Of a DNA stretch of 64,000 bases, positions 3,415 through 21,513 are shown piece by piece. The stretch lies in contig NZ_CP101416.1 in assembly GCF_027942295.1 (NCBI RefSeq), forward strand, positions 4,140,501 through 4,204,500, given 5' to 3'. The position numbers and the translations under genes are program-made. The notes beneath the pieces are model-generated. The model made no database searches and was not told the origin of the DNA. It was given only the letters and a program-made list of their open reading frames with translations. Numbering within the stretch: position 1 is the stretch's first letter; each line of letters opens with the position of its first letter. Origin of the DNA: Pseudanabaena sp. Chao 1811. GTDB lineage: Bacteria > Cyanobacteriota > Cyanobacteriia > Pseudanabaenales > Pseudanabaenaceae.

Positions 3415-3798
3415 ATGGCTACTACAAGACGAGTTGCTCGTGTCGCCGAATTAATTAAACGAGAAGTCAGCAATATGTTGCTGAAAGATATTAAAGACGA
3501 TCGCGTAGGTATGGGCATGGTTAGCGTTACCGATGCGGAACTATCGGGCGATTTGCAACATGTGAAAATATTTGTCAGCATCTACGGTACTGAGGAGGCT
3601 CGTCAGCAAACGATGGAAGCTCTAGCCTCGGCGACAGGCTACATCAAACGCGAAGTCGGACAAAGATTAGCATTACGCCGTGTTCCTGAGGTGGTCTTCC
3701 ATGAGGATCGTTCCTTTGAACGTGGGGTCAAGGTTCTATCGCTGATTAATCAACTTAGCCGCGAGCGTGAAGAGAAGGAGTCAAATTCTAGTGATTGA
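3415..3798 (+). CDS. rbfA: Ribosome-binding factor A
   Basis: RbfA is a small KH-fold protein that binds the 30S subunit late in assembly and helps 16S rRNA 5'-end maturation and cold adaptation. The 127 residues match family length. Typical features are the basic N-terminus [18 protein letters not shown], the core [19 protein letters not shown], the strand [10 protein letters not shown] and the C-terminal [18 protein letters not shown] (D-x-S-x-E-x-G signature). The start ATG at 3415 gives the normal N-terminus. The last 8 nt overlap the next gene (GTG at 3791), and an AAGGAG inside rbfA serves that gene, so translational coupling is likely. Confidence 0.95.
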
Positions 3799-4426
3799 GT
3801 TATTTAAGGCAGGTGGGATCGTCATGTACCCACTTGCGGCTCTATCAATATTTGCCTTTGCGGGGATCATGGAACGTCTAATTTTTTGGTTTGGCATCCT
3901 GAGGCTGGAGAAACAAACTGGAGAAAATATTTTGGCGATCGCGCGTCAAGATTTAAAATTAGCGGCTCAATTAGCTGAAAACTCGCTTAAGGTTCCCGTT
4001 GGACGCTTTCTCTATGCTCCTTTAGCCCTAGAAGATCCTGATCCTGAATTGTTTCGCTTAGCCCTTGAAAGCTCTGCTGATGAGGAGCTAGCAGGAATGC
4101 TCAAGGGTGAACAGCTCCTAGAGGCGGCGATTACTCTTGCACCTTTGTTAGGTCTGTTAGGAACGGTGACAGGATTAATCATCTCTTTTGGTTCTCTCAA
4201 AATTGGTGATGTTGCGGCAAATGCAAAGTCGGGATCGCTGACTCAAGGTATCGGAGAGGCTTTAATTACAACTGCGACAGGTTTAATCATTGCAATTTTC
4301 ACCTCTGCATTTCACCGTCTATTTCTAGCCTTTCAAGATCAGCAAGCCAAGCTATTTATGAAGTTCGGCAATCAACTAGAGCTAATCTATCGACAACATT
4401 GGCAACAAAATAAATCTCATTCATAA
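3791..4426 (+). CDS. MotA/TolQ/ExbB proton channel family protein
   Basis: The product of 211 residues (GTG at 3791) is an inner-membrane protein of the TolQ/ExbB/MotA family, which uses proton flow to drive a partner. An upstream in-frame GTG at 3767 exists, but AAGGAG at 3775-3780 sits 10 nt before 3791 and favours the later start. Membrane segments are near residues 5-30 ([19 protein letters not shown]), 115-140 ([20 protein letters not shown]) and 155-180 ([20 protein letters not shown]). The [14 protein letters not shown] and [13 protein letters not shown] motifs are diagnostic of the family. No ExbD/TolR partner follows: an intrinsic terminator comes at once, so the partner must be encoded elsewhere. 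Confidence 0.88.
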
Positions 4427-4455
4427 AAAAGGGTTCGCAATGCGAACCCTTTTTT
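4425..4455 (+). terminator. Rho-independent terminator
   Basis: The stem AAAAAAGGGTTCGCA pairs perfectly with TGCGAACCCTTTTTT around a one-base centre and ends in a U-run. It starts at the stop codon of the ExbB-like gene and closes the rbfA transcription unit. Confidence 0.92.
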
Positions 4456-4468
4456 ATAAGCATAAAAT

Positions 4469-4648
4469 AAATGAACATATTTAACCCAAGTTGCTACCTA
4501 TTCATTTAAGACTAAAGTTAAAATAAAAAATGCTAGATTTTTATATAAAAATAGCGTCATTTTGGACTTAGCGAGGCTGTTTTTAACTTGTTTTGAGCCG
4601 ATTTTTAATAGGTAGCAACTTGGGTTATTTATGAGTATATGTTCATTT
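4469..4648. repeat. MITE-like element with nested terminal inverted repeats
   Basis: A 12-base outer arm (4469-4480) is repeated inverted at 4637-4648, and a 21-base inner arm (4482-4502) is repeated inverted at 4607-4627. All arms are perfect. The 104-bp centre is AT-rich and has no reading frame. No target duplication could be seen. The structure is that of a non-autonomous foldback or miniature inverted-repeat element. Confidence 0.7.
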
Positions 4649-4736
4649 TTGAGATTGAGAGTGTTAAATCCCATTTATCTTGTCTATAAATTATTTAGAA
4701 ATATGTATTGTTGCTCCATAAATAAGGCTTTAAGCA

Positions 4737-4765
4737 TTGACAGTTGGTCACACAAATGAGAATAT
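4737..4765 (+). promoter_or_regulatory. Candidate sigma-70 promoter
   Basis: TTGACA at 4737-4742 is followed after 17 nt by GAATAT at 4760-4765, which has four of six consensus -10 bases. It points at the unknown gene whose ATG is at 4805, about 40 nt downstream. Confidence 0.4.
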
Positions 4766-4804
4766 TAAGTGGGCTAGCGAAGCAACTATATATGTATTTC
4801 TTAT

Positions 4805-5479
4805 ATGGATATCAGTCCTCTTTCTTTTATCTTTATCTTAACTAAAGATGCTCTCGAAATTCTAAATAAGCTTGGCATAGATACTTCCAAAGCATTTAGG
4901 GGAAAAATTACTAGCGAAAAGATCAATCTGCAAGAATTAAGCACAATCCTAATAAAAGAAGGAAAGCCTCTTGATGAGATAATATTGCTACTAAATGATA
5001 AAAGAAATGGAATCCTGAATGAGATATCGGAACTAAGTAAAAAAATCATTGAAATCAATAGTCAAATTGGATACATCAATGACGGAATTGATAGGCTAAA
5101 AGAAACAAGTGAGAAAGAAGGTAGATATCCAGAATTTATACAATGGATAGACCAACACACGCTAGAACTGTCAAATAGAGCTTACAATTCATCATTTAGT
5201 CAAAATGACAGAAATAGACACCAGCCAGAAGAGAAAGAAGCTTATATATGGTGCATTAAGTCTTGCATCGAACTTACACGAGATAAATTATTTAGTAAAA
5301 AAGCTTCAGATGGCTCTGTTCTACCGATAAGAATGATAAGTGAGAAGATAAAGTTTCCTAGATCGGCATATCTTAAATCAATAGAACTCATTAAGAAAGA
5401 AGTAGATAAAAATGGTTCTAAGATTCCAGTTAGTGAATTTAAAAAACTTCTAGATAATATAATTCAAAGAATTGTTTAA
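4805..5479 (+). CDS. Hypothetical protein with central coiled coil
   Basis: I do not recognise this 224-residue protein. It is lysine- and isoleucine-rich and AT-rich in its DNA, with no HIP1 site, unlike most neighbours. Residues about 62-105 (NGILNEISELSKKIIEIN, then QIGYINDGIDRLKET) look like a coiled coil. Residues about 120-170 contain W-I-D-Q-H-T and a Y-I-W-C-I-K-S-C cluster. The C-terminal third is a charged helical stretch. No signal peptide or membrane segment is seen. The start ATG has no clear ribosome site. It lies downstream of the MITE-like element and upstream of a convergent small gene, so the patch may have been acquired horizontally. Confidence 0.55.
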   Translation: MDISPLSFIFILTKDALEILNKLGIDTSKAFRGKITSEKINLQELSTILIKEGKPLDEIILLLNDKRNGILNEISELSKKIIEINSQIGYINDGIDRLKETSEKEGRYPEFIQWIDQHTLELSNRAYNSSFSQNDRNRHQPEEKEAYIWCIKSCIELTRDKLFSKKASDGSVLPIRMISEKIKFPRSAYLKSIELIKKEVDKNGSKIPVSEFKKLLDNIIQRIV

Positions 5480-5584
5480 AAAATTTAGTAATTCTCAAGG
5501 CTTTGTTTGTGTAGCAATCATATTTCATTTATGAGGTTAAATGGTTTGAAATAATGCGCTTTAAAGAGAGCGTAATATGGACAT

Positions 5585-5740
5585 CTAACCATTTAGAGTT
5601 GCTATATGTTGTTCCAGAACATCAATTGCCTCTTTTAGTTTTTCAGCTTGTAATGTCTTTTCTTTACCATCCAGTTTTAAGCTGATTAATTTTGCCTCAA
5701 GGTCTAGCTTTTGTTGACGAAGTTTAGATACATCTGGCAT
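5585..5740 (-). CDS. Small coiled-coil protein, 51 residues
   Basis: A short frame reads from ATG at 5740 to TAG at 5585-5587. The predicted peptide begins MPDVSKLRQQKLDLEAKL and continues as one amphipathic, Leu/Lys/Glu-rich helix with regular leucine spacing, as in a short coiled coil. I recognise no family. The ribosome site is weak. A 14-bp perfect palindrome lies just upstream and could be its operator. It is convergent with the 224-residue unknown gene. Coding status rests only on composition and on the long coiled-coil pattern. Confidence 0.45.
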   Translation of the reverse strand: MPDVSKLRQQKLDLEAKLISLKLDGKEKTLQAEKLKEAIDVLEQHIATLNG

Positions 5741-5755
5741 AAATTTGATGTTTTT

Positions 5756-5786
5756 AGATTAACTTAGTTAAAAACTAAGTTAATCT
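5756..5786. promoter_or_regulatory. 14-bp palindrome upstream of small gene
   Basis: Arms 5756-5769 and 5773-5786 are perfect complements around AAA. The site lies 16 nt upstream of the small minus-strand gene, so it may be an operator or a 5' leader hairpin. The rest of 5741-6130 is AT-rich, with no gene seen; it should hold the promoter of the WGR operon. Confidence 0.45.
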
Positions 5787-6130
5787 TATGATTTACAACA
5801 AGAGCCAAAAGTACTAGGTTCTTACTAAATTTTGGGATATCCAGCAAAACAAATCTTATAAATCTTAGTATTACATACAGATTTATAAAATCTAATAGTC
5901 TATGCATCCTATTATTTTATGTTTATCCTGCAAATATATGTTCATAATGACATCTAAATATGGTGGATTGAGGACTTTAACATAGAATAAATTTATTGAA
6001 GAAAATTTTATGTAAGTATAATCATTCGCTTAACTTGCAAACCTTCTGAAGATTTGTAATACAAATACTTTTGCGGTTGATTGATCAGGCAGACTAACTA
6101 TTACATCGTGAAATTACAGAGTGGGACGGT

Positions 6131-7582
6131 ATGGATGCAAATATTCCAGACAACATCACCTATCTGGAACTGTCAGAAGGCGATCAGGGCGCACATAAGT
6201 TTTATGAAGTTATTGTTGAAGGCGTAGAAGTCAAGATTCGCTATGGCAGGATTGGCGATAAAGGGCAGCAGCAAACTAAAGCCTATCCCACTGCCGAAAA
6301 AGCGCAGAAAGAAGCCGCCAAAAAAATCAATGAGAAAATCCATAAGGGCTATGCCCCTGCGGTCATGGGTGCACGTAAAAAGCGATCGCCTACCCTGCGA
6401 TCCATTGAGAGTACTCCTGCCACCGTCACTAGTCGCGCCCCGATTTTATGGTCATTTCGTGCTAACTCAGCCGCCTTTGGGATTTTTATTGATCGCGATC
6501 GCTGCTGGTTAGGCAATCAAGCAGGACAGGTATTTAATCTCGACCATGAGGGAAAAGTAAATAACCAATACCAACTGCCCGACGGAGTAAAGTGCATTGT
6601 TGCCGATGATATGTGGATTTATGTGGGTTGTGATGATGGCAATGTCTATGATCTCAGTGGTAAATTTCCGCGACTCGCCTATGAAATTGACTCCCAGATT
6701 GATATTTACTGGCTCGATATTTGGGATGGCACATTAGCGGTTTCCGATGCCAATGGAGCGATCGTCAAAATCGAACCTACAGGCGAACAATGGACGCGCC
6801 TGAGTCAAGGGCAAGCGGGTTGGATGGTACGTTGCGATCGCCAAAATATCTATCATGGACATAGCGGCGGAGTTACGGCTTATGACTTACAAGCGGGACG
6901 ACAACTATGGCATCAACCAACGGAGGGCATGGTTCTATTTGGTTGGCTAGATCATAGCGGAGTCTATGCAGGCACTTCTGCGAAGAGGCTCTATCGCATG
7001 GATACACAGGGTAATGTACAACAGATTTATAGCTGCGATGCCTCGGTCTATTGCTGTGCCACTTCGCCAAATGGGAAGTATGTCTTTGCAGGTGATAACT
7101 CCTCCGCAATCTACTGTTTTCAAGCATCGGGTAAGCGACTCTGGAAATTAGGCACAGGTTGTGGCTCAGCCCTATCCATGCAGTTTCTCGATGATCGGCT
7201 CTATCTGGTGACAACCGATGGCGTATTAGCCTGTATGGATGCTTCCCAAAATGCGATCGCTTCGGCTCAACAGGGACAAGTTCCTCAAGTGCGGCAAACA
7301 AACACGAGTAATCTTCCCCATGCAGTGGTCGTGAATACCCCCCTAGAAACCACTCGCATCGCCGATCATCAATCATCGCAAGGTGTAATTGTCGAATGTA
7401 TTCGGAAAGGGAATGAACTCAAAATCCATGCTATTTCTGAAGGATATCATCCAGACTGGTTTGTGCAGTTTCCCCGTGACATTCGCGAGGAGGGAGCGAA
7501 ATATTGGGTACAGGAATTAAGAGAAGCAGCAAGAGGTGGCTTCTATCGGGTCTATGGTGATATTAAGCGCTATGAAAGTTAA
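6131..7582 (+). CDS. WGR domain / beta-propeller protein
   Basis: The 483-residue protein starts with a WGR domain (about residues 8-80), recognisable by YGRIGDKGQ at 38-46 and the following KAYPTAEKAQKEAAKK helix. WGR domains are nucleic-acid and protein-binding modules known from poly-ADP-ribose polymerases and from bacterial MolR-like proteins. Residues about 105-385 are PQQ/WD40-like propeller blades (for example VYDLSGKFPRL, VTAYDLQAGRQLW, IYCFQASGKRLWKLG and LYLVTTDGVLACMD). A separate C-terminal module (about 415-483) carries DWFVQFPRDIREEGAKYWV, then REAARGGFYRVYGDI. No signal peptide is seen, so it is probably cytoplasmic. The next gene starts 21 nt later and shares the propeller type, so the two form an operon and may act together. 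Confidence 0.85.
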   Translation: MDANIPDNITYLELSEGDQGAHKFYEVIVEGVEVKIRYGRIGDKGQQQTKAYPTAEKAQKEAAKKINEKIHKGYAPAVMGARKKRSPTLRSIESTPATVTSRAPILWSFRANSAAFGIFIDRDRCWLGNQAGQVFNLDHEGKVNNQYQLPDGVKCIVADDMWIYVGCDDGNVYDLSGKFPRLAYEIDSQIDIYWLDIWDGTLAVSDANGAIVKIEPTGEQWTRLSQGQAGWMVRCDRQNIYHGHSGGVTAYDLQAGRQLWHQPTEGMVLFGWLDHSGVYAGTSAKRLYRMDTQGNVQQIYSCDASVYCCATSPNGKYVFAGDNSSAIYCFQASGKRLWKLGTGCGSALSMQFLDDRLYLVTTDGVLACMDASQNAIASAQQGQVPQVRQTNTSNLPHAVVVNTPLETTRIADHQSSQGVIVECIRKGNELKIHAISEGYHPDWFVQFPRDIREEGAKYWVQELREAARGGFYRVYGDIKRYES

Positions 7583-7603
7583 CCACAATTGAGAGGTGCG
7601 CGT

Positions 7604-9643
7604 ATGTCTTATTTCATCCATCGAGTTCCCAAGGCTCTAATTTTAGAATCAGTGGCTACGGGCGGATTAGCTGGTGTTATGTTCTGCCCACATCCTAACG
7701 AATCCCGTAGAGCCTTTGAATATGACTATGGTTCGACCGAAGGTCGAGATTCATTGGTGAATATTAAGGATTTTCCTGAATTAGACTATTTACAGTTTTA
7801 TTGTATAGAAAGTCCCTCTAGCTACCATTACGATCGCTGCTTTAACGACGCAGATTGGCTACATATCCGCCCCTTATTTTATATCGAAGGGAAAGCAATC
7901 GGCTATAACACGAGGAGGGATAAACCACCCTTACCGAAAGCTCTAAATCCATTATGGGAATATACACCTCCCAATGAAAAGGGAAGTTGGAAAGTTGGTA
8001 CATGGGCTTTATGGGCAGATGAGCAAGCGATCTGGACAGGAAACCGTGAGGGTTTAATTTTGACTTTTGCGCCCGATGGACAGATCCATAATCGTTGGCA
8101 ACTGCCCAAGACGACACGCTGTCTGACGGGAAATTCACAGGGGATCTATGCTACCTGTGATGATGGCAATCTCTACAATCTGATTGGGAAGTTGCCCCAA
8201 GTTGTGTATAACTGTCGTTCCGAAGCGGTTTCTATTTGGTATGACTTTCTGATCTATGGACTAGATAGTTATGGCGATCGCTTACATATTAGCGATGTAT
8301 ATGGCAGAATTACGCAGCTTAATCATCAATTACAAGTGCAATGGCAACAACAGGTCGGCAGTGGACATTCTTGGTTCTTGCAGTCCGATGACTATGCTCT
8401 GTATCGAGGAAACCATCAGGGAGTCACCGCCTATGCGATCGCGACTGGTAAGTTGTTATGGACTTATGCCACTGCCTGCGTTTTATGTGGAGTTTTAACG
8501 GAAGATACGATCATTATCGGTACGGGCGATCACCATCTCTACGAATTACAAAAGTCGGGAGACATTAAGGCAAAAACGACAGAGATTAAATCTTTAGCAC
8601 TATGTGACGGTGCGCCCTATGCCTGCACGCTCACGGATGATCAACAGACTATTTTTGTCGCCGATCATCAAGCCGATCTCTATGCCTTTAATCGCGCAGG
8701 TGAACGTTTATGGAAGTATCCCCTTAGTTGTGGTGTGGCTTTGGCAATGCGCTGTGTTGGCGATCGCCTCTATCTGACTACTACGGAGGGAACGATCGCC
8801 TGTTTTGATCTGATTGTAATTGCCAATCCTGCTCAACCAGTGACCATTACCAAGAAAACAATTCCTCCAATTGCCACCTCACCTGCATCTTCGCCATCAC
8901 CTACGCCAAAATCCCCTAAACTCGCCGAACAACTAAATCTCGATCTGTCTACCTTGCAAGCAGAGTTACAAGCCCTTGCTAATCCTGCGAAAGCGATCGC
9001 ACTGGCACGTTACTTCAAGACAGGCAAAGGGGAATATGGGGAAGGCGATCGCTTTTTAGGAATTACTGTGCCTGCCCAGCGTCAACTTGCTAAAAAATAT
9101 CGTAATTTAGAGTTCAGTGAGATCGCCCAATTACTAGATGGTGAATGGCATGAAGAAAGGCTCACAGGTTTATTGATCCTCACCTACCAGTTACCCAAGG
9201 CGAATCCTGAAAAGCAACAAGCGATCGTTGACTTTTACCTTGCCCATACCAAGGCTGTGAATAATTGGGATCTTGTGGATATTAGCTGCCGTCCCATTTT
9301 AGGCAAATATCTTTTATCACGCGATCGCCAAATTCTCTATCAATTGGCACAATCTTCTAATCTGTGGGAACAACGTATTGCGATCGTCACTACAGGTGAA
9401 TTGATTAAACATCAATCCTATGAAGATACTTTGGCGATCGCCCAAATATTACTAAATCATCCCCATGACCTCATTCATAAGGCAGTGGGCTGGATGCTGC
9501 GAGAAGTTGGCAAACAGGATCGACAGGTTTTAATCAACTTCCTAGATCAATATGCCCCACAGATGCCGAGGGTAATGTTGCGCTATGCGATCGAGCATTT
9601 CGATCAACCACAGCGACAGGACTATTTACAACGTAAAGCTTAG
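7604..9643 (+). CDS. Beta-propeller protein fused to AlkD-type DNA glycosylase
   Basis: The start is taken as ATG 7604 because GAGAGGT at 7591-7597 is a good ribosome site for it; a TTG at 7589 is less likely. The 679-residue protein has an N-terminal region of unknown type (1-110). A PQQ-like propeller homologous to that of the preceding gene follows (about 115-405, with LYAFNRAGERLWKYPL and LYLTTTEGTIACFD), then a Pro/Ser linker (about 410-440). The last 235 residues are an AlkD-family HEAT-like domain. AlkD enzymes excise positively charged alkylated bases. The key residues appear conserved: NNWDLVD with Trp555 and Asp559, Arg591 in EQRIAIVT, and Trp630 in AVGWMLREVG. The end overlaps the convergent CheW gene by 4 nt. 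The fusion is unusual. Confidence 0.88.
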   Translation: MSYFIHRVPKALILESVATGGLAGVMFCPHPNESRRAFEYDYGSTEGRDSLVNIKDFPELDYLQFYCIESPSSYHYDRCFNDADWLHIRPLFYIEGKAIGYNTRRDKPPLPKALNPLWEYTPPNEKGSWKVGTWALWADEQAIWTGNREGLILTFAPDGQIHNRWQLPKTTRCLTGNSQGIYATCDDGNLYNLIGKLPQVVYNCRSEAVSIWYDFLIYGLDSYGDRLHISDVYGRITQLNHQLQVQWQQQVGSGHSWFLQSDDYALYRGNHQGVTAYAIATGKLLWTYATACVLCGVLTEDTIIIGTGDHHLYELQKSGDIKAKTTEIKSLALCDGAPYACTLTDDQQTIFVADHQADLYAFNRAGERLWKYPLSCGVALAMRCVGDRLYLTTTEGTIACFDLIVIANPAQPVTITKKTIPPIATSPASSPSPTPKSPKLAEQLNLDLSTLQAELQALANPAKAIALARYFKTGKGEYGEGDRFLGITVPAQRQLAKKYRNLEFSEIAQLLDGEWHEERLTGLLILTYQLPKANPEKQQAIVDFYLAHTKAVNNWDLVDISCRPILGKYLLSRDRQILYQLAQSSNLWEQRIAIVTTGELIKHQSYEDTLAIAQILLNHPHDLIHKAVGWMLREVGKQDRQVLINFLDQYAPQMPRVMLRYAIEHFDQPQRQDYLQRKA

Positions 9644-10101
9644 GTTCCAGCCATTTTGAGCAATAGTTCCGCATCTAATAAAAAGACCGTTTGCGGCTCT
9701 TCAAATTTTTTGATCGGTATCTGCATCATGTGGCTAGCAATACCTAACGTATCGCGATCGCGATAGTCGGCTGGGATTGGCTGCAAGCTACTTAGAGCCA
9801 CATCCTGCACATTTGGCAAAGTTGCGATCGTAATGCCGTATAAACTGCGTATTCCCCCAAAAATCACCAAGAAGCCTTTGGCAATATTAGACTCTTGACC
9901 GTAAATTTTTTTATATAAATCGATGACGACGATCTCTTGCTCTTCATAGATAATTATGCCTAATAACTTATCACCACTACGATAGATTTTTGGCAAGGGA
10001 ATAATCCGTATGACACTATCAATTCCCACTGCTAAATTGAGATCTCCCATCGAAAAGATGAGGAATTTAAGGGTTTCTTCTTTTTTCTGACTGATGAGCA
10101 T
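9640..10101 (-). CDS. CheW-domain protein
   Basis: From ATG 10101 the product has 153 residues; a TTG at 10113 would add four and GGGA lies correctly for the ATG. The sequence is a CheW fold: LKFLIFSMGDLNLAVGIDSV, then IIPLPKIYR, a central LLGIIIYEEQEIVVIDL and YGITIATLPNVQDVAL. CheW links chemoreceptors to CheA. It is the last gene of the chemotaxis operon, 48 nt after cheA. Its CheW motif is somewhat divergent, as is usual for the second CheW of cyanobacterial tax operons. Confidence 0.8.
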   Translation of the reverse strand: MLISQKKEETLKFLIFSMGDLNLAVGIDSVIRIIPLPKIYRSGDKLLGIIIYEEQEIVVIDLYKKIYGQESNIAKGFLVIFGGIRSLYGITIATLPNVQDVALSSLQPIPADYRDRDTLGIASHMMQIPIKKFEEPQTVFLLDAELLLKMAGT

Positions 10102-10161
10102 AGTGTTTCCCAAATAGTTATTGAGTAAAGTGCGGGAAGTTACGAGATTTGGATTAAGTAA

Positions 10162-13100
10162 TTAAAGCTTTGGTAAAAGATTTTGGATAGTCTTAATGAG
10201 TTCCTGTTCGAGATAGGGCTTAGTCAAATATCCTGAAGCCCCAAGCATCTGAGCAACTCCGCGATGCTTCGCACCACCACGGGAAGTGACCATTACAATC
10301 GGGAGATGGGCAAAACGACTCTCTTTGCGACAGGCAGTTAAAAACTCAAATCCATTCATATTGGGCATTTCTACATCGCATAGCACCGCTTGGATTTCTG
10401 TCGATCTAGAGAGTTGATCGATCGCTTCCCGTCCATCACATGCTTGAATGATTTGATATCCAAACTTTTCTAAAGTGAGATACAAAGCTTGGCGAGTGGT
10501 AAGGGAATCATCCACAATCAAGATAGTTTTCCTTTGGATTGGTTTAAGCTGAGGTGTTGTATTAATTGATTGATCGGCTATTGATTGATTGGATGCAGAA
10601 GTTAGATCGGAACTGGTTGATTTAGTTGGTTTAGATATTGTCTTTGACTGTTTATTAGAAAGCAAGGCGGTACTATCAATTACAGGTACGAGTGTGCCAT
10701 CACCCAAAATCGTACAGCCATAAAGATATGGTGGCGGCGCGATCGCTCTACCAAAGGGCTTAATTGCTAATTCCTGTTCATTGAGTACGCGATCAATTGG
10801 TAGTGCAAATATTTCATCACCACTGGATAGCAATAACAATGTGATTTGCTCCTCATCTGTAAATGCTTCGGTACTTAATAGTTCGATTGAGCGTTTGGGT
10901 AGAGGATAACCATCTTCAAACATAGAAGTGGTATGTAGAGGTATTAGTCGATTCTCAAAACGGTAAAATTTTTCGCCTTGGATGTTTTGAATAGCATCGG
11001 CATCAACAGTATTGATCCCTAATAAAGTATCAATGGGAATCGCTAGCAAACGATCTTGAATACTGAAAATCAATAGCTTAGCAATACTAAGAGTCAAAGG
11101 AAGTTTAATGATAAAAGTAGTTCCTTGTCCCACTTCCGATTTAATCTCAATGGAACCCTTGAGACTGCGTACCTGCTCTTGCACCGTCGATAGCCCCATG
11201 CCTCGCCCTGAAAGCTCAGATACCACCTCAGCCGTAGAAAAACTTGGCTCAAATAAAAGTTGATAAACTTCTTCATTGGTAAGTTGATCGGCTTTTTCAG
11301 GCTTGAGTAAACCCACAGCGATCGCTTTCGATTTTACTTTTTCGAGATTAATCCCATGACCATCATCTTTAATTTCGATATAGGTTTGGTTGCCGCGATA
11401 GTAAGCCCGAATCTCAATGGAAGCAATTACAGATTTACCTCGTTCGAGACGCTCCTGGGTGGATTCTGTACCGTGGTCAAAGGCATTGCGTACCAGATGC
11501 ACAAAGGGATCGTAAAGCTTCTCTAAGACGGACTTATCAACTAAAGTACCCGTGCCGAACATTTTGAGATTGACCTGCTTGTTGTACTTATTCGACATTT
11601 CCCGCACCATGCGCGGCAAGCTGGTGAGAATATCTCCCAAGGGCAACATCCGTGACCAGAGCAAGTCATACCTTACTTGTTTGAGAATTTGCTGTTTGCG
11701 CCGTTGTGTTTGATAGGTTTGCTGCATCAAAACTGTCATGTCACGCATCCCTTCATCCATTTGTGCAATCTCTTCGAGAGCTTCTTGAATGACACCATAT
11801 AGACGATTATAAGAATCCATTTGTAATGGATCGAAGTCCGCCAATAGATTTGCAGTATTAGATAATGTTGCAGCTAGCTGAGGCTTGTTAAATAAATTGA
11901 ACGATGATACGGGACTAAAATTTGGGGTTCTTACCTGCGATCGCTGAGCCTTGTCTAACCAAGTTTGCAGATTTTTAGAAAGATTTTCAAAACCTTTAAA
12001 TTGCTTTTGCAGCCGTTCAATTTTGGCTTGCAATTGTTGATGATGTAAAATCGAAGCATTTTCTTGCGTTACCAGTTCACTAGAAAAATTGTTCAATCTT
12101 TCTAATCTAGAGAGATCAACTCTGACGGTTTCTGATATATAGGGAGCAGCTTTTTCTAAACCTTTAGCATTTTTCTGACTAGTAGTTGCCTTAGCGACAT
12201 TTTTAGAATTAGCGATCGCAATTTTTGATTGAGCAATGGAACTTGCCGTACTAATTATTGGCGTTGGTGCTATTGGATTTTGAGTAATAGCATCTATTGC
12301 TAAATCGGCTAGATATTGATCGGATTTTGAAGGAGTTTCTCCCAATACGCCCTCTTGTTCTCCAAAAAAATCGGACAATTGAGCAACTTCAACAATATCA
12401 TCAGATTTTGAAGGGATTTCTCCAGAAAAGCTCTCTTGCTCTCCAAAAAAATTATATAATTGAGGAACTTCAACAATATCATCAGCAATATCAAAGATAT
12501 TTAGTTCAAGGTCATCATTTTTATCATCTAATCTTGCAGAGAAAACCTCAAAATTTTGATCAAGATTTTCCTCAAGATTTATATCTTCAAAATTTAAATC
12601 CTCAAGATTTAAATTTAAGCTATCAAAACTCTCAAACTCTTCTGTATCTGGGGTTTTATCACTGATTTCCGAATTGAGTTCTGGGGAAATTATCTCATCA
12701 AGAGAATCATCGCTAAGTTGTTCAAAATTTTGTAAATCTAGGTTTAAATCTGGAGAACTTAAATCTGGGGAATGGAGATTCTCTACTTCCAATAAACTAG
12801 CACTAGTATCCTCTAAATCTAGATTTGCTGAACTAAAAATATTTAGCTCTTGTTCTAAAGACTGAAACCATTGATCATCAGATTCTTCAATATCAAAAAC
12901 TAGATCTAAATTGGGAGGATTATCATTAGGTTTAACAGCACTTTGCTGAGGTGGACTAGCTGGAGACTGGACAGTGGGAGATTGATTAGTTTGGGTAAGC
13001 GCAATTAACTCTGGGCTGGGCTGACCACCTTGAGCGCGATCGCCCGCTAAAACTTCAGCACGCGCCGCCACAAAATTAGCAATAGCGACCTTGCCTACTA

Positions 13101-13770
13101 AAATCGGATTATCGGGGTGACGCTCAAGAGCCTGTAAAGTTGCATGGGCAATCGCTTGAAATCCAGACAGATTCAATAATTCGCCAATTCCACTAAATAC
13201 CTCAACCTGCGCTCGAATTTCTCCTTTAACAGGGACACCCTCTGGATTGTCAAGTACATTTTGTAAGCGGAGGATACCTTGTTGGACATCACCATCAAAT
13301 ACGATCTGGACAATATCTACACCCAGCTCAGCCGCCGTTGGTAATTCAGTATCTTCATCGGTATCACCTAAATAGAGCTTTAGGACTTCAAATATTGGTT
13401 CGGCGGTCTCGATTGCCGATGCTTCTTCATAATGCCCCGATTGCAACTGATCCATTAAAGGTAAACGCAAACAGTCATAGGCCTGCAAAAGCAAGCTCTC
13501 TAAGTCAGCATCAATCTCACCCTCAAAGCGATATAGCGATCGGAAGACATCCTCTAACTGATGGGCGATCGTTTTGATTCCTTCTAAATTCAAGCTGGCG
13601 GAACCACCCTTAATAGAGTGGGCAGCTCGCATAATCGCGTGAATATTGTTAGTGCTACGATCTTCTCGCAGGGAGAGTAAGCCAGTCTCAATTGTTTGCA
13701 AAAACTCAGGGGCTTCTTGCTTAAAAAACTGATAAGCCTGATCGTGAATTTCGGTTTCTGTACTATACAT
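10162..13770 (-). CDS. CheA-type hybrid histidine kinase (Hpt-HATPase-CheW-REC)
   Basis: This 1202-residue protein is the central kinase of the operon. The Hpt domain (about 10-115) has the phospho-acceptor His51 in AAHSIKGGSASL. Residues about 280-500 are a very acidic, Leu/Asp/Asn-rich low-complexity linker with a duplicated 27-residue unit. The dimerisation region is near 545-720. The CheA ATPase core follows, with HLVRNAFDHGTE (N box), IKDDGHGINL and SGRGMGLSTVQEQ. The CheW-like regulatory domain is about 905-1045. A C-terminal receiver (about 1080-1200) carries Asp1132 in LCDVEMPNMNG and a KP lysine in YLTKPY. This architecture matches the cyanobacterial PilL/PixL-type CheA of phototaxis systems. 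It sits 18 nt downstream of a chemoreceptor gene. Confidence 0.93.
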   Translation of the reverse strand: MYSTETEIHDQAYQFFKQEAPEFLQTIETGLLSLREDRSTNNIHAIMRAAHSIKGGSASLNLEGIKTIAHQLEDVFRSLYRFEGEIDADLESLLLQAYDCLRLPLMDQLQSGHYEEASAIETAEPIFEVLKLYLGDTDEDTELPTAAELGVDIVQIVFDGDVQQGILRLQNVLDNPEGVPVKGEIRAQVEVFSGIGELLNLSGFQAIAHATLQALERHPDNPILVGKVAIANFVAARAEVLAGDRAQGGQPSPELIALTQTNQSPTVQSPASPPQQSAVKPNDNPPNLDLVFDIEESDDQWFQSLEQELNIFSSANLDLEDTSASLLEVENLHSPDLSSPDLNLDLQNFEQLSDDSLDEIISPELNSEISDKTPDTEEFESFDSLNLNLEDLNFEDINLEENLDQNFEVFSARLDDKNDDLELNIFDIADDIVEVPQLYNFFGEQESFSGEIPSKSDDIVEVAQLSDFFGEQEGVLGETPSKSDQYLADLAIDAITQNPIAPTPIISTASSIAQSKIAIANSKNVAKATTSQKNAKGLEKAAPYISETVRVDLSRLERLNNFSSELVTQENASILHHQQLQAKIERLQKQFKGFENLSKNLQTWLDKAQRSQVRTPNFSPVSSFNLFNKPQLAATLSNTANLLADFDPLQMDSYNRLYGVIQEALEEIAQMDEGMRDMTVLMQQTYQTQRRKQQILKQVRYDLLWSRMLPLGDILTSLPRMVREMSNKYNKQVNLKMFGTGTLVDKSVLEKLYDPFVHLVRNAFDHGTESTQERLERGKSVIASIEIRAYYRGNQTYIEIKDDGHGINLEKVKSKAIAVGLLKPEKADQLTNEEVYQLLFEPSFSTAEVVSELSGRGMGLSTVQEQVRSLKGSIEIKSEVGQGTTFIIKLPLTLSIAKLLIFSIQDRLLAIPIDTLLGINTVDADAIQNIQGEKFYRFENRLIPLHTTSMFEDGYPLPKRSIELLSTEAFTDEEQITLLLLSSGDEIFALPIDRVLNEQELAIKPFGRAIAPPPYLYGCTILGDGTLVPVIDSTALLSNKQSKTISKPTKSTSSDLTSASNQSIADQSINTTPQLKPIQRKTILIVDDSLTTRQALYLTLEKFGYQIIQACDGREAIDQLSRSTEIQAVLCDVEMPNMNGFEFLTACRKESRFAHLPIVMVTSRGGAKHRGVAQMLGASGYLTKPYLEQELIKTIQNLLPKL
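12321..12482. repeat. 81-bp tandem duplication within cheA
   Basis: Copies 12321-12401 and 12402-12482 are adjacent and similar, in frame, and encode two 27-residue units. Each contains D-D/Q, a VEVxQL-like core, FFGEQE and PSKSD. They extend the acidic linker between the Hpt and catalytic parts of the kinase. Confidence 0.75.
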
Positions 13771-13788
13771 AGCTACTATCCTGCTGCT

Positions 13789-16389
13789 CTAGCTAACTTT
13801 AAACTGAGATACGCTGACTTGTAACTCCTGTGCAACCTTCAATAATTCACTGAAAGCTTCGTTGAGACTTTCAGTTTGATGAGAGTTGTTTGATGCAATT
13901 AAGGCAACATTCTGAATTGTGTGACTAACTTCTTCAGAGGTTTGGGCTTGAATTGCCGCCGATCGCGCAATTTCTTCCACAAGTTGGTTTACGCTCTGAC
14001 TGGATGAAGAAATGTCAGTGAGTTTTTTCCGAGACTCTTCAACTAGCTGTGAACCATCGTTTACCTGCGTAGTCCCAATCTCCATCGCTTGAACGAGTTC
14101 ATTGGTTTGGGCTTGAATTTCTTCGATTAACTGTCGAATTTCGGTGGTAGCTTTTGCCGATCGCTGTGCTAAGGCGCGTACTTCGTTAGCAACTACACTA
14201 AAGCCCTGACCTTCCTCACCCGCACGAGCAGCTTCAATGGAAGCGTTCAAGGCTAACATATTCGTCTGAGCAGCAAAACCACTAATCAGCTTGACCACCT
14301 TCGAGATCTTTTGGGAAGCTTCTCCTAAGAGTTTTACTTTCTCCGCAGTTTCCGATACCGTATCACGAATTGCCATAAACCCAGCAACAGTACTATTCAT
14401 CGCCGCATCACCTTGGATCAAGGCTTCGTTTGCATAGTCCACTTGTTCTTTGGCTTGGGCTGCAAAAATTTCTACTCCCTCAATGGACTCGGTAAGTGTA
14501 TGAATCCGCTCAAGGGTTTCAGTAATTGCTTGTAACTGTTGGTTAGCTCCAATAGATACACTTTGTACTGTTTGCTCATTTTCAGTAACAGTTTGCGATA
14601 CAGACTGAGAAGCTTTTTGTACTTCTAGTACCAATTTGCGGAGGTTTCTAATTGTGGAGTTATAGGAGTCAGCAATTGTCCCAATTTCATCCTCAGTGAC
14701 CTTCGCACGAATTGTTAAGTCACCACGACTGATCGGATCAACTTCGATTAGCAATTCGAGCGCTCGTTGTTGTAGAAATTCTTTAGCTTGGCGTTGTTCT
14801 TGAATCCGTAGCTCTGCTTCAGTTTGCGTAACTTCTTGCCTAGCTGCAGCAATGCGTTCTGCTTCTAGTTGTTTTTCGGCAATCAGCACTTCTAGCTGAT
14901 CTGCCATGTTATTTAGCTCTTGAGACAATGTGCCAATTTCATCAAGGCGATCGCTATCGGTTAGACGTTCTCCCATTTCCCCTCGACCAATCTTTTGAGT
15001 AAATCCCGACAAACGTTGCAAGGGAGTAGCAAATGAAACGGCGATCGCAATCCCGATCGCACTAGCAATGACGATGGAAACTATGGCGATCAAATATCCA
15101 GTATTGGACAAACTTGATAATAGCTCTTGAACCTCTACTATGGGTAAACCAACATAGGCAATGCCAACGGGCTTAGAGTTAGGATCGAGCAATTTGCGAT
15201 GGTCATATAGTGGTGCATAAAAGGTTAAGTAGTTGACACCCGTAATATTTGTTTCTCCCACATATTGCTGTCCTTGCTGAAGAACAACATCGGATACTTC
15301 ACGGGCAGCACGAGTACCGATCGCTCTAGTTTTGTCTGGGCTTTTAGTATTTGGGTCAATGTAGGGGACGTTGGTACTAACTCGCCAATCTTGTGCAAAA
15401 ACCGTTGCGGTGGGCATGTTGTACCGTTTAGAAAATTTATCAACAATGCCATAGTTGCGATTGAGTAAAGAACCCACCACCGCAGTGCCAACAACCCGAC
15501 CCTTGACTTTAATCGGATACACTGCCATGCTCACTAGTCCCGATTTACCCTGTTCGATTTCATAGCTTCCTGTGGGGGCTGGCTGTTTAGATTCTTTTAA
15601 TCCTTGGGTTATTTGAGGACGAATACCAATGTTTGCTTGCTTGTCTAAGCCTAAAGCTTGGAGATCCGATGCTTTTACTAACTCGATGCCGTACATCGGC
15701 TTACCTGTAGCGATCGCATTTTTGACAATGGACAGATTTGCCAAATTACTATTAGGTAATGCAGCCTGCTGTTTGTAAGACTGAGGAACTAATTCTTCTT
15801 TACTTTTATCGGCAAGTTGCGGAAACTTAGTAAAATCTTCATCAAGAACTAGCACATTCCCTTCAATACTTTTACCCGTATTGTCTGTAATCAGCTTGAT
15901 ATTTTTAATTGATTCTGGATCAACACCTTCACTATTAATCTGGAGTAAAGGTTGTAGAAGTGAACGTTTGGCAGCAAGTTCATTAGCATCGCTAACATTG
16001 AAATTTGCATCTTCTATAGATTTTGCGATCGCCTCTGCACCTTGTCTACTTTCGGAATTTGTCCACATCACATATTCCGACACAAAGAATGAACCCTTTT
16101 CCTGTACTGTCGTCTTTAAAGCCTTGAGTGAGGATTCTTCCGATGCTTTTACCAAGGTTTGGGTAACGATTAATACTGGAACACCTGAAGCCAGCAACAG
16201 TAAAATCGAAAGCTTCCATCGTACACTTACATTATTCCAAACTTGCAAGGGCAACTTCCAGAAAGGAACCTTTGGTTTTGATGGCGATGCGAATATTTCT
16301 GGCTCTAATTCAGAGACTGGTGTGAGACTTTCTAAGCTTTGTGCCGTATCCTCAGAAGGTGGAATCTCTGATTTATCTTTCAATAACAT
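13789..16389 (-). CDS. Methyl-accepting chemotaxis protein with Cache-type sensor
   Basis: The 866-residue receptor has a long N-terminal cytoplasmic tail (about 1-57). TM1 follows (about 58-82, [20 protein letters not shown]), then an extracytoplasmic region of about 340 residues of the dCache kind ([12 protein letters not shown] and [16 protein letters not shown] are typical strands). TM2 is near 430-450 ([18 protein letters not shown]), with a HAMP domain and a second HAMP-like stretch ([16 protein letters not shown]). The signalling hairpin holds [21 protein letters not shown] leucine-rich tail ends in [11 protein letters not shown], almost the same as in the neighbouring receptor, so the two are paralogs. 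No bilin-binding GAF is present, so it is not PixJ-like. It probably senses a small molecule in the periplasm. Confidence 0.92.
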
Positions 16390-16460
16390 AATTTCTCCAA
16401 ATAGTCATCAATTGACAGGAATTGATTTATAGAATTGATTTGTAGGGGCAGTCACAGGGG

Positions 16461-16495
16461 ACTCCCCATTAATGATTAACTTCAGGATGGGGAGT
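16461..16495 (-). terminator. Stem-loop between the two receptor genes
   Basis: Arms 16461-16469 and 16487-16495 (ACTCCCCAT and ATGGGGAGT) flank a 17-base loop in the 111-bp gap between the receptor genes. It lies just after the stop codon of the upstream receptor and could tune downstream expression or protect the message. No U-run is seen. Confidence 0.35.
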
Positions 16496-16500
16496 TCTCT

Positions 16501-18822
16501 CTATACAACTTTGAACTGCGATACGCTAACTTGTAAATCTTGCGCAACTTGTAAAAGTTCCGAGAACGATCTCGCGACTTCCTCCGATTGTTTGGAGGTC
16601 TCTTCAGCAATTACGGCAATATCCTGCATCGTTTTACCCATGTGATCGGATGTTTTGGTCTGGGTATTTGCAGCGATCGCAATATCTCTAACAATGGTAT
16701 TAACCTGTTGGCTCACCGTGGCAATTTGAGTCAATTTTTCACGGGCGTTTTGTACCAGTTTTGTCCCTTCAACCACTTGCTCTGTACCAGTTTCCATCGC
16801 CGCAACTACTTCGTTAGTTTGAGCCTGAATCTCTTCTACTAACTGTTCGATTTCCGCCGTTGATGTTGCGGACTGTTCCGCAAGGTCACGGACTTCTTCG
16901 GCGACAACACTAAAACCTCGACCTTCTTCCCCTGCACGGGCTGCCTCAATCGCTGCATTGAGAGCAAGAAGGTTGGTTTGTGCTGCGAAGTTACTAATGA
17001 GGTTAACGATCCGTGAGATCTTTTGAGAGGTTTCTCCAAGGCGTTTAACTTTTTTCGCTGTTTCCGACACAGTTTCACGGATATCAGAAATACCCAAAAC
17101 TGTAAGGTTCATTGCTTCATCGCCTTCTTGGAGTACCACCGAGGCAACCTGCATTCCTTGCTCAGCTTGTTTGGCTTTGATTTCTACACCTCGGCTCGAT
17201 TCTGCCATTACGGTAATTTCTGCCAGCGCTGAGTTGATTGATTCTGCCTGTTTCATGGCTTCAGCAGATACCGATCGCACAGATATTTCATTACTTGTTG
17301 CCGTCTCACTCACTGCCTGCGAAACCCCTTGCACTTCTAATACAAGTTTCCGCAAGTTGCGAATAATGGCGTTATAGGAGTCAGCGATCGTCCCTACCTC
17401 ATCAGCGGTTACATTTGCCCGAATCGTCAAATCACCACGGCTGACAGGATCTACTTCCATCAATAGCTCTAAGGCTCGACGTTGCAAAAATTCTTTTTCT
17501 TGTCTTTGCTGTTCAGCGCGTTCATCTGCCTCAGCCCTTGCTTCTCTTCGGGCTTTTTCTAGTCTTCCTGCTTCCTGTTGTTGTGCTTCACTGAGGTACT
17601 TAAGTTGTTCCGCCATCCCGTTGATGTTCGCCGACAAAATGCCTAGCTCATCTTCGCTCTTAACTTCCAGTCGGCTATCGAGATCGCCCTGCCCAATTTT
17701 AGCTACCACATCAGCAGCATCCTGAATCGGCTTCACACTTCGATTTACTAACAAAGTGGCAAGAAATCCAACGATTAAGGCGGTAATACCAGTTCCTGCG
17801 GCAAAGGCGATTGTGAGGTCTCTATTAGACTTAAATGCCGAGTCAACATCATTCGTAATAATTAATCCCATATTGAGATTTGGCATATTACGATAGCTTG
17901 GTAATGGACTATAAGTAGCTAGTTCCGCCTGTCCGCCAAAAGCCTCTATCAATTCTTTAGTATTTGGCTTTTTACTATTGATATCTGAGGCTAGGTCTGG
18001 GAAATTTTCTTGAGCTTGACGACCGTGCTGCGATACCTCATTCGACAGTACAATTTTCCCCTTAGCGTCAATTAAATAATATTCGTCATCCTCTTTTAAA
18101 CTTCCTTCGATACTCTCACTCAGTTGATCAACAGGCACTTGCGATCGCATTACCCCAATCAGCTTGTCAGTGCTATTCTCTTTGACAGGTGCAGCCAGAA
18201 AAAAGCTGATAGTTTTATCAGTTGCTGACAGAATTGGCTGGCTGATAAATATACTACCCTTTATGGCAGCTTTGAAAAATTCACTATCTTTGATGTTAGT
18301 GTTTGGATCTTGTGTAGATGTAGAACGAATTGATGTAGTTCCGTTTAAATCAGCAAAGGCAATTAAGTTATATACTCCATAGGACTTGGCATAGTCATTT
18401 AACACTGCCTCACGTTCAGTTTGAGCAATCGATGCTTGGACTTTGCGATTCGTAATAATTGGATGGGATGCTAAGACTTGAATATCACCATAGCGCTCGT
18501 ACATAAAACGATTAACCTTGTCGGAGATGGCAATAGTCTTTTGCAATTGGGTATCACGAATTCTTTCATCAAGGGATCGGCTAGACAGATAGCCAGCCAC
18601 ACTACCGACTACCACCACAGGGATGGTACTAATTGCCACCGCCAGCAATGTTGCTTTAGCACGCAGCGATGGCGATCGCCACCCTCGTTTCTTGGGCTTA
18701 ATAGGCTCAATCAGCAGATCTGTTAACTCAGGTATCTCATCAAAGTTAGGTAGTTCCTGCCCTTGGAAAGCCTCTTTACTATTGGCATTGACTTGTTTGG
18801 GTTGGTTATCCTGTGTGAGCAT
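16501..18822 (-). CDS. Methyl-accepting chemotaxis protein with Cache-type sensor
   Basis: The 773-residue receptor is a paralog of the next gene in the operon. It has an N-terminal cytoplasmic tail rich in charged residues (about 1-50) and TM1 (about 53-75, [19 protein letters not shown]). The periplasmic Cache sensor (about 80-335) includes [12 protein letters not shown] and [19 protein letters not shown]2 (about 340-362, [20 protein letters not shown]) is followed by a HAMP domain with [16 protein letters not shown] and a second HAMP-like [20 protein letters not shown]. The conserved hairpin [20 protein letters not shown] and the tail [11 protein letters not shown] complete it. The Cache signature of an aspartate and a tyrosine next to a hydrophobic strand suggests an amino-acid- or nucleoside-type ligand, but the ligand cannot be read off. 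Confidence 0.92.
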
Positions 18823-18951
18823 AGTTTTTATTCCTGAAATATTAAAGATCTAAAAAATTTGTAGCGTTGAAGAACCTGATTGCATCCCCGTTAAGCACCA
18901 AAAACATTTCTTTAAGCATGTATTGGTAACAGCCAAATACTGAAAAGTGGT

Positions 18952-20184
18952 CTACTTACCCGTACTCTCAATACCCTGCACCAACTTAGTAAAGTACCAT
19001 ATCTGCTGTGGGGTCGCAATTTCACCTGCCTTCAGAAAAGGACTTCCATCTTGATAGTTAATTGCTCCTTTATAAAGATTAATACTGCGATCGCCTAGCC
19101 CCTTAATAAACTCCGTTAGGAACTTATCATTCTCAGGAGTCAAAGCCTTACCCTTCTCAAATCCTACCGATGAAGTGTCAATGTTATTTAAGTCCTGCCA
19201 ATCGGGCTTAGATAAAACAAATTCACCAGTAAATTTTCCTTCCCTCGCTTTGACAATCTGATCTAGATAGGCAGGTCCCCAATTGTAATAGGGAACACCA
19301 ATACAGATATCTGGAGCAAGGTTACAACCAGTTCTGATATCGTAATGGAGAAATTTGACTTTTTTGCCAGCTTCAACAGCCTTTTTGCTCTGTACTGACA
19401 CTTCTGGAGTATCGATTCCACTCAGTACGACATCAAATCCATTGTTGTAAAAGTCATCAGTGACCTTGCTGGGATCAAGGGTTTTACCGGGAATGTTGAA
19501 CCAAAATCCAATCCATGCGACTTTAAATTTTAGATCGCTCGGATTTTTCTTACGATAGTTCTGCCAACAATATTTAGCACCCAAATAACTAGCTGAAACT
19601 AATCTGCGAGTTTCATCATTACTTAGAGGTCCTACATAGCCGATTTTACCTGTCTCCGAGCTAAGGGCTGCCGAACAACCTGCAATCATTGTGCCGTACT
19701 CAACCTGCGGCATGATGTTACCAAGGTTAGGTTGGTTTTTAAAGTTCTTGCCCTCTTTCCAAGCATAATCACCACTAGCATGAATAACTGATACATTAGG
19801 ATGCTTTTTAGCTGTTTCTAGAGCCTCCTCTTTAAAATCATCGGAATTGAAAATGACCAGCTTAGCCCCCTTAGCAATTAGGTCATCAGCCACCTTCGAT
19901 GCTTTAACATTTGGGCGATCGCCAGGGTTGACGAGATCCACATACTGAAACTGAATATTTGATTGCTTTTCCATTACGTATTTTGTTGCCTCGTAATGGG
20001 CTTGGTTCCAGCCAGAATCATTTTTAGGTCCGACTAAAATCATTGCAACCTGAAATTTTTTTTCATCTGAGATAGAAGTTGTAGAATTGCTATTGCAAGC
20101 TCCAGCTAGAATTCCCACTAGTGCGGCTGCCCATAAGCGTTTAAAAAAAACTATAGATAAAAACTTATTAGAATTTGGTTTCAT
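18952..20184 (-). CDS. BMP-family substrate-binding lipoprotein
   Basis: The 410-residue protein has an N-terminal hydrophobic signal ending in a lipobox-like AGAC (Cys about 30), so it should be anchored outside the inner membrane. The body matches the Bmp/Med/PnrA family of periplasmic binding proteins: FQVAMILVGPKNDSGWNQAH, then LIAKGAKLVIFNSDDF, IMPQVEYGTMIAGCSAAL and KIGYVGPLSNDETRRL. Members usually bind nucleosides or purines for an ABC transporter. Here no ATPase or permease gene is adjacent. The gene sits between cheW and two receptor genes on the same strand, 129 nt before the first receptor. That suggests it presents a ligand to the receptors, which is an inference. Confidence 0.85.
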   Translation of the reverse strand: MKPNSNKFLSIVFFKRLWAAALVGILAGACNSNSTTSISDEKKFQVAMILVGPKNDSGWNQAHYEATKYVMEKQSNIQFQYVDLVNPGDRPNVKASKVADDLIAKGAKLVIFNSDDFKEEALETAKKHPNVSVIHASGDYAWKEGKNFKNQPNLGNIMPQVEYGTMIAGCSAALSSETGKIGYVGPLSNDETRRLVSASYLGAKYCWQNYRKKNPSDLKFKVAWIGFWFNIPGKTLDPSKVTDDFYNNGFDVVLSGIDTPEVSVQSKKAVEAGKKVKFLHYDIRTGCNLAPDICIGVPYYNWGPAYLDQIVKAREGKFTGEFVLSKPDWQDLNNIDTSSVGFEKGKALTPENDKFLTEFIKGLGDRSINLYKGAINYQDGSPFLKAGEIATPQQIWYFTKLVQGIESTGK

Positions 20185-20556
20185 GGCAAGTTCATTCAGT
20201 TGTGTTTAGATTATATTTAGATGTTTGATGCTTTTTGATGTTGCACTTAAAGGCATCTCTAAAAATTTAAATTCAGGATCAAAGGACAAAGGGAAATTAG
20301 TACTTTTATCTTAATTTTTCAAGTAAAAAAGAATTAGTAGAAACATCTTTAAAACAGACTGACAAAGTAAATCGCCATAGGTAAAAGATATATAAATCCT
20401 AAATTAATTGTGTTTTTTTGGGTTTAGGAAAGTCTTGTGCAAATAGTAAGCTTTTTAGCAAATTAATTAAGATTACCGTCTTAAGAGATCCTATAGCTGC
20501 AATTTGATTAGTTGTAATACAAACCTAAACATAGTATGTAACCTTATTTGCAATTT
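20185..20556. other. Gene-free gap inside the chemotaxis cluster
   Basis: These 372 bases are AT-rich and hold no reading frame or recognisable RNA. They follow the cheW gene and precede the lipoprotein gene, so a separate promoter for the lipoprotein-receptor-cheA unit is likely here. Confidence 0.5.
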
Positions 20557-21090
20557 CTAGGCTGATGAGGTTTGGGCGATTTGTGCGATCGCATCTCCAT
20601 CAAGCACCAAAAATGTTTCGTTACTCCCATTTAGCCAATATCCTCGACAGGCTTTCATCATGGCTGGATTTGTAAATGAGAAGCCTGAAGTCTGAATTGT
20701 TGCAGTATCACACCTAATCATTTGCCCCACTTGCGACACTGCAAAGCCTAGTACGCAATCTTGACTACGCACAAAGATAATATGGCACTTGTCTTGAAAT
20801 TTCCCCTGTTCATATTCCTGTGCATAGAGGGGCTTATACCCCAACATACTTGCAAGATCGACTACCCAAATTACGTCACCTCGCCAGTTATAAACCCCCA
20901 TAACACTCGTCGAAATAACTGCGATCGCCGTTAACTGTGACAAATTAACCTTAACAATTTCTAGCAATTGCTGAGTTGGCAATAGGGCTTGCTGCTCAGG
21001 GGCTAAAGCAAAAGTCAAAAACTGATCCAATGATTGATTTTTGCTTTTTCTGGACAAATTTTGCTGACTGCCAATGATTTGATTTGCCAC
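20557..21090 (-). CDS. CheW-domain protein (PilI/PixI-like)
   Basis: The 177 residues form one CheW domain: LTFALAPEQQALLPTQQLLE, then VMGVYNWRGDVIWVVDLASM and VLGFAVSQVGQMIRCD. The N-terminal 25 residues are polar and variable. In cyanobacterial pil/pix/tax loci the order is PATAN regulator, CheY, CheW, receptor, CheA, and this gene holds the third place, 13 nt after the cheY stop. It should couple the receptors to CheA. Confidence 0.88.
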   Translation of the reverse strand: MANQIIGSQQNLSRKSKNQSLDQFLTFALAPEQQALLPTQQLLEIVKVNLSQLTAIAVISTSVMGVYNWRGDVIWVVDLASMLGYKPLYAQEYEQGKFQDKCHIIFVRSQDCVLGFAVSQVGQMIRCDTATIQTSGFSFTNPAMMKACRGYWLNGSNETFLVLDGDAIAQIAQTSSA

Positions 21091-21103
21091 GGCGATCGCC
21101 CTC

Positions 21104-21469
21104 CTAATCCTTAACTAATAGTCTGATGGTACGAACTAGTTCAGCCGCATCAATTGGTTTTGTGAGATAAGCGGAAGCCCCTTGTTTCATTCCCCAGAAC
21201 TTATCCATCTCACCACTCTTAGTCGAACAAAGCACGATGGGAATGTCTTTAGTCTCAGGCTTTTCCTTTAAATCACGACAGAGTTCAAATCCACTCTCAT
21301 TCGGTAAAACCACATCTAAGACGATGGCACTAGGCTTTTGCTGGCTAATTTTAGTTCTCGCATCATCGCCACTAGTGGCTAAAATCGTCGTGAAGCCAGC
21401 ATTTCTAAGACTACCTGTGATAATTTCAGCTTGGGTCATGGTATCTTCAACCACTAAAATCGTACTCAT
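21104..21469 (-). CDS. CheY-like response regulator (PilH/PixH-like)
   Basis: The 121-residue single receiver has the acidic pair ED near the N-terminus (ILVVEDTMTQAE), the phospho-acceptor in IVLDVVLPNESG, a conserved Thr/Ser region (IVLCSTKSGEMDKFW) and the lysine in AYLTKPIDAAEL. The pattern WGMKQGASAYLTKP is typical of the PixH/PilH/TaxY group. It is second in the operon, 44 nt after the PATAN regulator and 13 nt before cheW. Confidence 0.9.
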   Translation of the reverse strand: MSTILVVEDTMTQAEIITGSLRNAGFTTILATSGDDARTKISQQKPSAIVLDVVLPNESGFELCRDLKEKPETKDIPIVLCSTKSGEMDKFWGMKQGASAYLTKPIDAAELVRTIRLLVKD

Positions 21470-21513
21470 ATCTCGATTGTTTCCTAAATTTATTTGATAC
21501 TTAGGGATTATCC

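What the first reader, a model, noticed from the sequence alone, without database searches (positions are those of the whole stretch)
6131..9643. Two-gene operon pairing a WGR protein with a propeller-AlkD glycosylase fusion
The two genes, 21 nt apart, share a homologous PQQ-like propeller, but one has a WGR domain at the front and the other an AlkD-type glycosylase at the back. Asp559, Trp555, Arg591 and Trp630 match the residues known in AlkD (Asp113, Trp109, Arg148, Trp187 of the Bacillus enzyme), so the enzyme may be active. WGR domains bind nucleic acid or partners at DNA breaks. A propeller linking a sensor domain to a base-excision enzyme suggests a two-protein DNA-damage or modified-base surveillance system that I do not know to be described.
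Basis: partly seen in the sequence, partly recalled or inferred. Interest (0 to 1): 0.78.

Follow-up and report, generated by a model that had tools for sequence, protein, structure and literature searches.

The report
WGR-propeller pair with fused AlkD glycosylase
Two neighbouring cyanobacterial genes encode a propeller protein with a WGR (nucleic-acid-binding type) domain and a sister propeller that, in this lineage only, has become joined to an ordinary DNA-repair glycosylase; relatives of the first protein also sit in retron defence operons, hinting at a portable sensor module whose partner can change.

Summary
In detail: coordinates, 21-nt gap, homologous propellers (34%), WGR at the front of A, AlkD at the back of B, and the four AlkD residues W555, D559, R591, W630 all check out; the residues are invariant in 21 of 21 AlkD copies. 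The A-B propeller pair is recurrent (other cyanobacterial genera, a Calothrix plasmid), but outside one Pseudanabaena clade B has no AlkD. There the cell's single AlkD gene became the C-terminus of B; three sister genomes keep AlkD without the propeller. So AlkD is a late addition, not part of the conserved pair. The A family is large (448 GTDB hits in several phyla), often a lone gene. It is also a close companion of type XIII retrons: all 12 A-bearing Myxococcales genomes found have the WGR_XIII gene after an A gene, and 7 of 19 SWIM_XIII-positive cyanobacteria have A near the RT. PADLOC has no model for it. The window's genome has no type XIII retron. Most likely A is a nucleic-acid-sensing propeller scaffold that swaps partners and here tethers a working AlkD. 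The function is inferred, not shown.

The parts
6131..7582 (+). Gene A: WGR - beta-propeller - CtA protein, 483 aa
6158..6361 (+). WGR domain of A (residues 10-77; the motif reads YGR or FGR in the aligned relatives)
   Evidence: PF05406 E 1.1e-17; alignment A1; only WGR match in the genome
6443..7243 (+). PQQ/BamB-like beta-propeller of A (residues ~105-371)
7379..7576 (+). CtA: conserved C-terminal domain of A, no Pfam or PDB match; also found twice in VWA proteins beside A or the type XIII RT
7591..7596 (+). Ribosome-binding-site-like GAGAGG before ATG 7604
   Evidence: sequence
7604..9643 (+). Gene B: NtB - beta-propeller - linker - AlkD, 679 aa
7604..7963 (+). NtB: N-terminal domain of B, unassigned; in G040 and in Cyanosarcina (L186) it is fused in front of an A homologue
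8000..8824 (+). Beta-propeller of B (residues ~133-407)
8825..8938 (+). Pro/Ser-rich low-confidence linker; fastest-evolving part of B
8939..9640 (+). AlkD-type glycosylase domain (residues 446-679); W555 at 9266-9268, D559 at 9278-9280, R591 at 9374-9376, W630 at 9491-9493
   Evidence: PF08713 E 9.9e-64; PDB AlkD; residues
5756..5786 (+). Terminator-like hairpin (14-bp perfect stem, weak T tail) between the upstream ORF and A; suggests A-B is its own unit
   Evidence: number of such sites in the scan is not above shuffles

Best explanation
A and B form a two-protein propeller module. A belongs to a widespread WGR-propeller-CtA family: by inference its WGR domain binds a nucleic-acid feature (end, nick, hybrid or modified strand), and its propeller and CtA dock partners. 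B (NtB-propeller), whose propeller is a diverged sister of A's, is one such partner and probably pairs with A. In the ancestor of one Pseudanabaena clade the gene for B lay in front of the cell's single AlkD gene and the two were joined, so AlkD, still an ordinary alkylpurine glycosylase by its residues, is carried to whatever DNA A recognises. Shown: the architecture, recurrence of the pair, the lineage-restricted AlkD fusion, intact catalytic residues, purifying selection, and the separate association of A's family with type XIII retrons. Inferred: nucleic-acid sensing by WGR, A-B contact, recruitment of AlkD, and any benefit of it.
For: A-B adjacency in G000, G020, G021 (with AlkD) and in G029, G096, Prochloron L159 and Calothrix brevissima plasmid5 (without AlkD), plus NtB fused to A in G040 and Cyanosarcina L186. 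One PF08713 gene per genome in all fused and unfused Pseudanabaena tested, so the fused copy is the cell's AlkD. AlkD tree: the 4 fused plus 3 stub-bearing copies are one clade, 99/93; homology of the standalone G023 locus runs into the linker about 30 nt before its first possible start. G011 has A - [type I R-M + Septu-like genes] - AlkD, collinear with A - B - AlkD, as if the propeller part had been replaced. Catalytic residues 21/21. A family linked to type XIII retrons: in 12/12 A-bearing Myxococcales genomes the WGR_XIII gene follows an A gene, within about 20 nt in 11 and 0.8 kb in one, with SWIM_XIII and RT_XIII following in all 8 loci with enough flank read; in cyanobacteria Fisher p = 1e-7 by genome, 1e-3 by genus.
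Against: In G004 A and B-AlkD lie on different contigs; G352 has B without a full A; G023, G025 and G011 lack the propeller yet keep AlkD, so the tether is dispensable. Most A genes, including all actinobacterial ones examined, have no B, AlkD or other conserved neighbour. No complex could be modelled. The WGR motif carries Y/F instead of W and no binding was tested. G000 also has an AAG-type glycosylase, so AlkD is not its only alkylbase glycosylase.
Confidence: 0.5

Rival explanations
1. The AlkD fusion is a near-neutral accident of gene order: B came to lie in front of AlkD and ran into it, and the two halves work independently (AlkD in repair, A-B in something else).
For: Fusion confined to one clade; propeller absent from three of its seven members while AlkD stays; linker evolves fast (dN/dS ~0.4-0.5); A-B exist without AlkD elsewhere.
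Against: The fused frame is intact in four genomes on both sides of the deepest split of the clade, with both halves under purifying selection.
Confidence: 0.3
2. A-B is an anti-phage or anti-plasmid module: A is a sensor of foreign nucleic acid, shared with type XIII retrons, and in this lineage AlkD serves as an effector that makes abasic sites in foreign DNA.
For: A heads type XIII retron operons in myxobacteria and lies beside the RT in several cyanobacteria; NtB is fused to a retron-linked A in G040; R-M and Septu-like genes sit in or beside the same locus in G011 and G021; A-B travels on a plasmid.
Against: G000 has no RT_XIII or SWIM_XIII; the AlkD is the cell's single copy and related to the standalone AlkDs of the genus; in the A tree the retron-linked and the B-linked proteins are separate groups; A is a lone gene in actinobacteria.
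Confidence: 0.15

Closest known systems
AlkD (PF08713), B. cereus alkylpurine glycosylase
   Same: Whole domain present; W109/D113/R148/W187 equivalents kept
   Different: Joined through a linker to a propeller protein; the solved B. cereus AlkD chains are about 220-240 residues, a single domain
Type XIII retron (RT_XIII, SWIM_XIII, WGR_XIII, HEAT-ARM_XIII in PADLOC)
   Same: Homologues of A are embedded in or next to these loci in myxobacteria, a planctomycete and cyanobacteria
   Different: The window's genome has no type XIII RT or SWIM gene; A has no PADLOC model of its own; no WGR-HEAT protein beside it
'WGR domain-containing protein' of NCBI annotation (e.g. Deinococcus deserti WP_012695089.1, Streptomyces fungicidicus WP_121549380.1)
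   Same: Full-length homologues of A (49-54% identity)
   Different: Those copies are single genes without B or AlkD beside them

Membership tests
AlkD / DNA_alkylation PF08713 | Profile match over the curated cut-off across the full domain | tested here: met
   215.4 bits against 21, positions 1-213/213
AlkD / DNA_alkylation PF08713 | Catalytic and DNA-contacting residues W109, D113, R148, W187 | tested here: met
   W555, D559, R591, W630; invariant 21/21
AlkD / DNA_alkylation PF08713 | Excision of alkylated purines | not testable with these tools
   needs purified protein
WGR domain PF05406 | Profile match over the curated cut-off | tested here: met
   64.3 bits against 22; central motif YGR/FGR
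Type XIII retron | RT_XIII and SWIM_XIII genes in the same genome or locus | tested here: not met
   no match in G000, G020, G021, G004 at the thresholds used
Type XIII retron | Homologue of A within the locus in other organisms (supporting, not defining in PADLOC) | tested here: met
   12/12 A-bearing Myxococcales genomes with WGR_XIII after an A gene; 7 cyanobacteria with A within 8 kb of the RT; Gemmataceae L199
Type XIII retron | Retron non-coding RNA / RT-DNA | not tested
   no type XIII RT in the genome; Rfam has no hit in the window

The most novel reading that the evidence does not exclude
The WGR-propeller-CtA protein is an overlooked core component of type XIII retrons and, more widely, a stand-alone sensor family; A-B(-AlkD) is its retron-free form, in which the retron's parts were replaced by a sister propeller and then a base-excision enzyme, so that base excision takes the place of the retron effector.
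Probability: 0.15. Interest if true: 0.75.

Novelty: new variant of a known kind. Interest (0 to 1): 0.55.

Why it matters
It gives a natural fusion tying an AlkD glycosylase to a scaffold partner, which can be tested directly for targeted base excision. It also points to a conserved WGR-propeller gene at the head of type XIII retron operons in Myxococcales and beside the RT in several cyanobacteria; PADLOC has no model for it, so it is a concrete lead for how those retrons sense or act.

Tried and rejected
Retron in the window's own genome: none found, so 'this is a retron' was rejected. Phage origin of A: no relative in viral contigs or phage records. Identity of NtB and CtA: no Pfam or PDB sequence match. 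Structure search returned only generic propellers at the top. Conserved neighbour of A in actinobacteria: none beyond reading-frame shadows of A itself. A WGR comparison alignment failed on a coordinate slip and was dropped. The paper that I recall as defining the retron types (doi 10.1093/nar/gkaa1149) is not held, so whether its authors noticed the propeller gene could not be checked; paper searches found no description of the pair.

Full report
Observation. A (483 aa) has a WGR domain, a propeller and a conserved, unassigned C-terminal domain (CtA). B (679 aa) has an unassigned N-terminal domain (NtB), a propeller homologous to A's (34%, E 1.5e-47), a Pro/Ser-rich linker and a complete PF08713 domain (E 9.9e-64). 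The four AlkD residues are correctly numbered from ATG 7604 and are invariant in 21 copies. The DNA contacts of R148, W109 and W187 in B. cereus AlkD are described in PMC4081403; the catalytic role of Asp113 is from general knowledge.

The AlkD part. Among 58 relatives and 390 genomes of the class, AlkD is joined to B only in G000, G020, G021 and G004, all of the window's genus. That genus is Pseudanabaena as judged from records whose contigs match G004, G007, G011 and G014 (Pseudanabaena sp. SR411, Pseudanabaena sp. UWO311, Phormidium tenue FACHB-1050, P. biceps). Each Pseudanabaena genome tested has exactly one PF08713 gene. In the AlkD tree the four fused copies and the standalone copies of G023, G025 and G011 form one clade (99/93), with G004+G011 and G000/G020/G021/G023/G025 as its halves. 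These three standalone copies carry a stub that resembles the linker, which the other standalone copies lack; in G023 DNA homology extends about 30 nt ahead of its first possible start. One joining event followed by two losses of the propeller is the simplest account; two joinings from a shared A-B-AlkD gene order cannot be excluded. In G011 a type I R-M set with Septu-like genes lies exactly between A and AlkD, where NtB-propeller would be. G021 has a type IIG R-M gene and G000 a strain-specific ORF just upstream of A: a variable, defence-rich spot.

The pair. NtB-propeller genes without AlkD lie directly after A in G029, G096, a Prochloron MAG (L159) and a mobilizable Calothrix plasmid; NtB is fused in front of A in G040 and Cyanosarcina. 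G352 has B alone. So the A-B partnership is recurrent and partly mobile, and AlkD is not needed for it.

The A family and retrons. A finds 448 relatives in GTDB contigs. In the order searched around Archangium, 12 of 145 genomes have A, and in all 12 the WGR_XIII gene follows an A gene, within about 20 nt in 11 and 0.8 kb in one; one genome has a second A copy without it. SWIM_XIII and RT_XIII follow in all eight myxobacterial loci where enough flank was read (five, three). In cyanobacteria 19 of 390 genomes have SWIM_XIII and 23 a full A; 9 have both (p = 1e-7; genus level p = 1e-3; relatedness is only partly allowed for), and in 7 of them A lies within 8 kb of the RT, in five overlapping or within about 10 nt of it, counting the longer NtB-fused gene in G040. 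A Gemmataceae MAG has A followed by RT_XIII. The window's genome has neither RT_XIII nor SWIM_XIII, and in the A tree the retron-linked and B-linked proteins do not mix (quick method, midpoint root). Actinobacterial A genes stand alone. No PADLOC model is built on A; the only hit is a weak one of its propeller to a HEAT-ARM_XIII model, E 5e-5.

Reading. A looks like a portable nucleic-acid-sensing scaffold with exchangeable partners; B is one partner, and AlkD a recent passenger on B. Whether the passenger is used for targeted repair, for attack on foreign DNA, or not at all, the sequence cannot say.

Noticed in passing
L192:12742-14580, L189:8633-10522: VWA proteins carrying two copies of the CtA domain sit beside a type XIII RT or beside A, so CtA is a shared domain of these loci.
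   Followed up: partly
L072 (G011) 3859-13351: Type I R-M set with PtuA and an HNH-like gene (Septu-like) between A and AlkD.
   Followed up: partly
L062 (G021) 3677-6583; window 4805-5479: Type IIG restriction-methylation gene just upstream of A in G021; at the same spot the window has a 224-aa ORF with no family and no close relative in 58 genomes.
   Followed up: yes
L070 (G014), L071 (G016), G003: Two A paralogues in one genome, tandem in G014 and G016.
   Followed up: no
window 9640-22000, minus strand: Chemotaxis-type cluster: a CheW-like gene overlapping B's stop by 4 nt, then reading frames that look like a CheA hybrid kinase and chemoreceptors (by eye).
   Followed up: no
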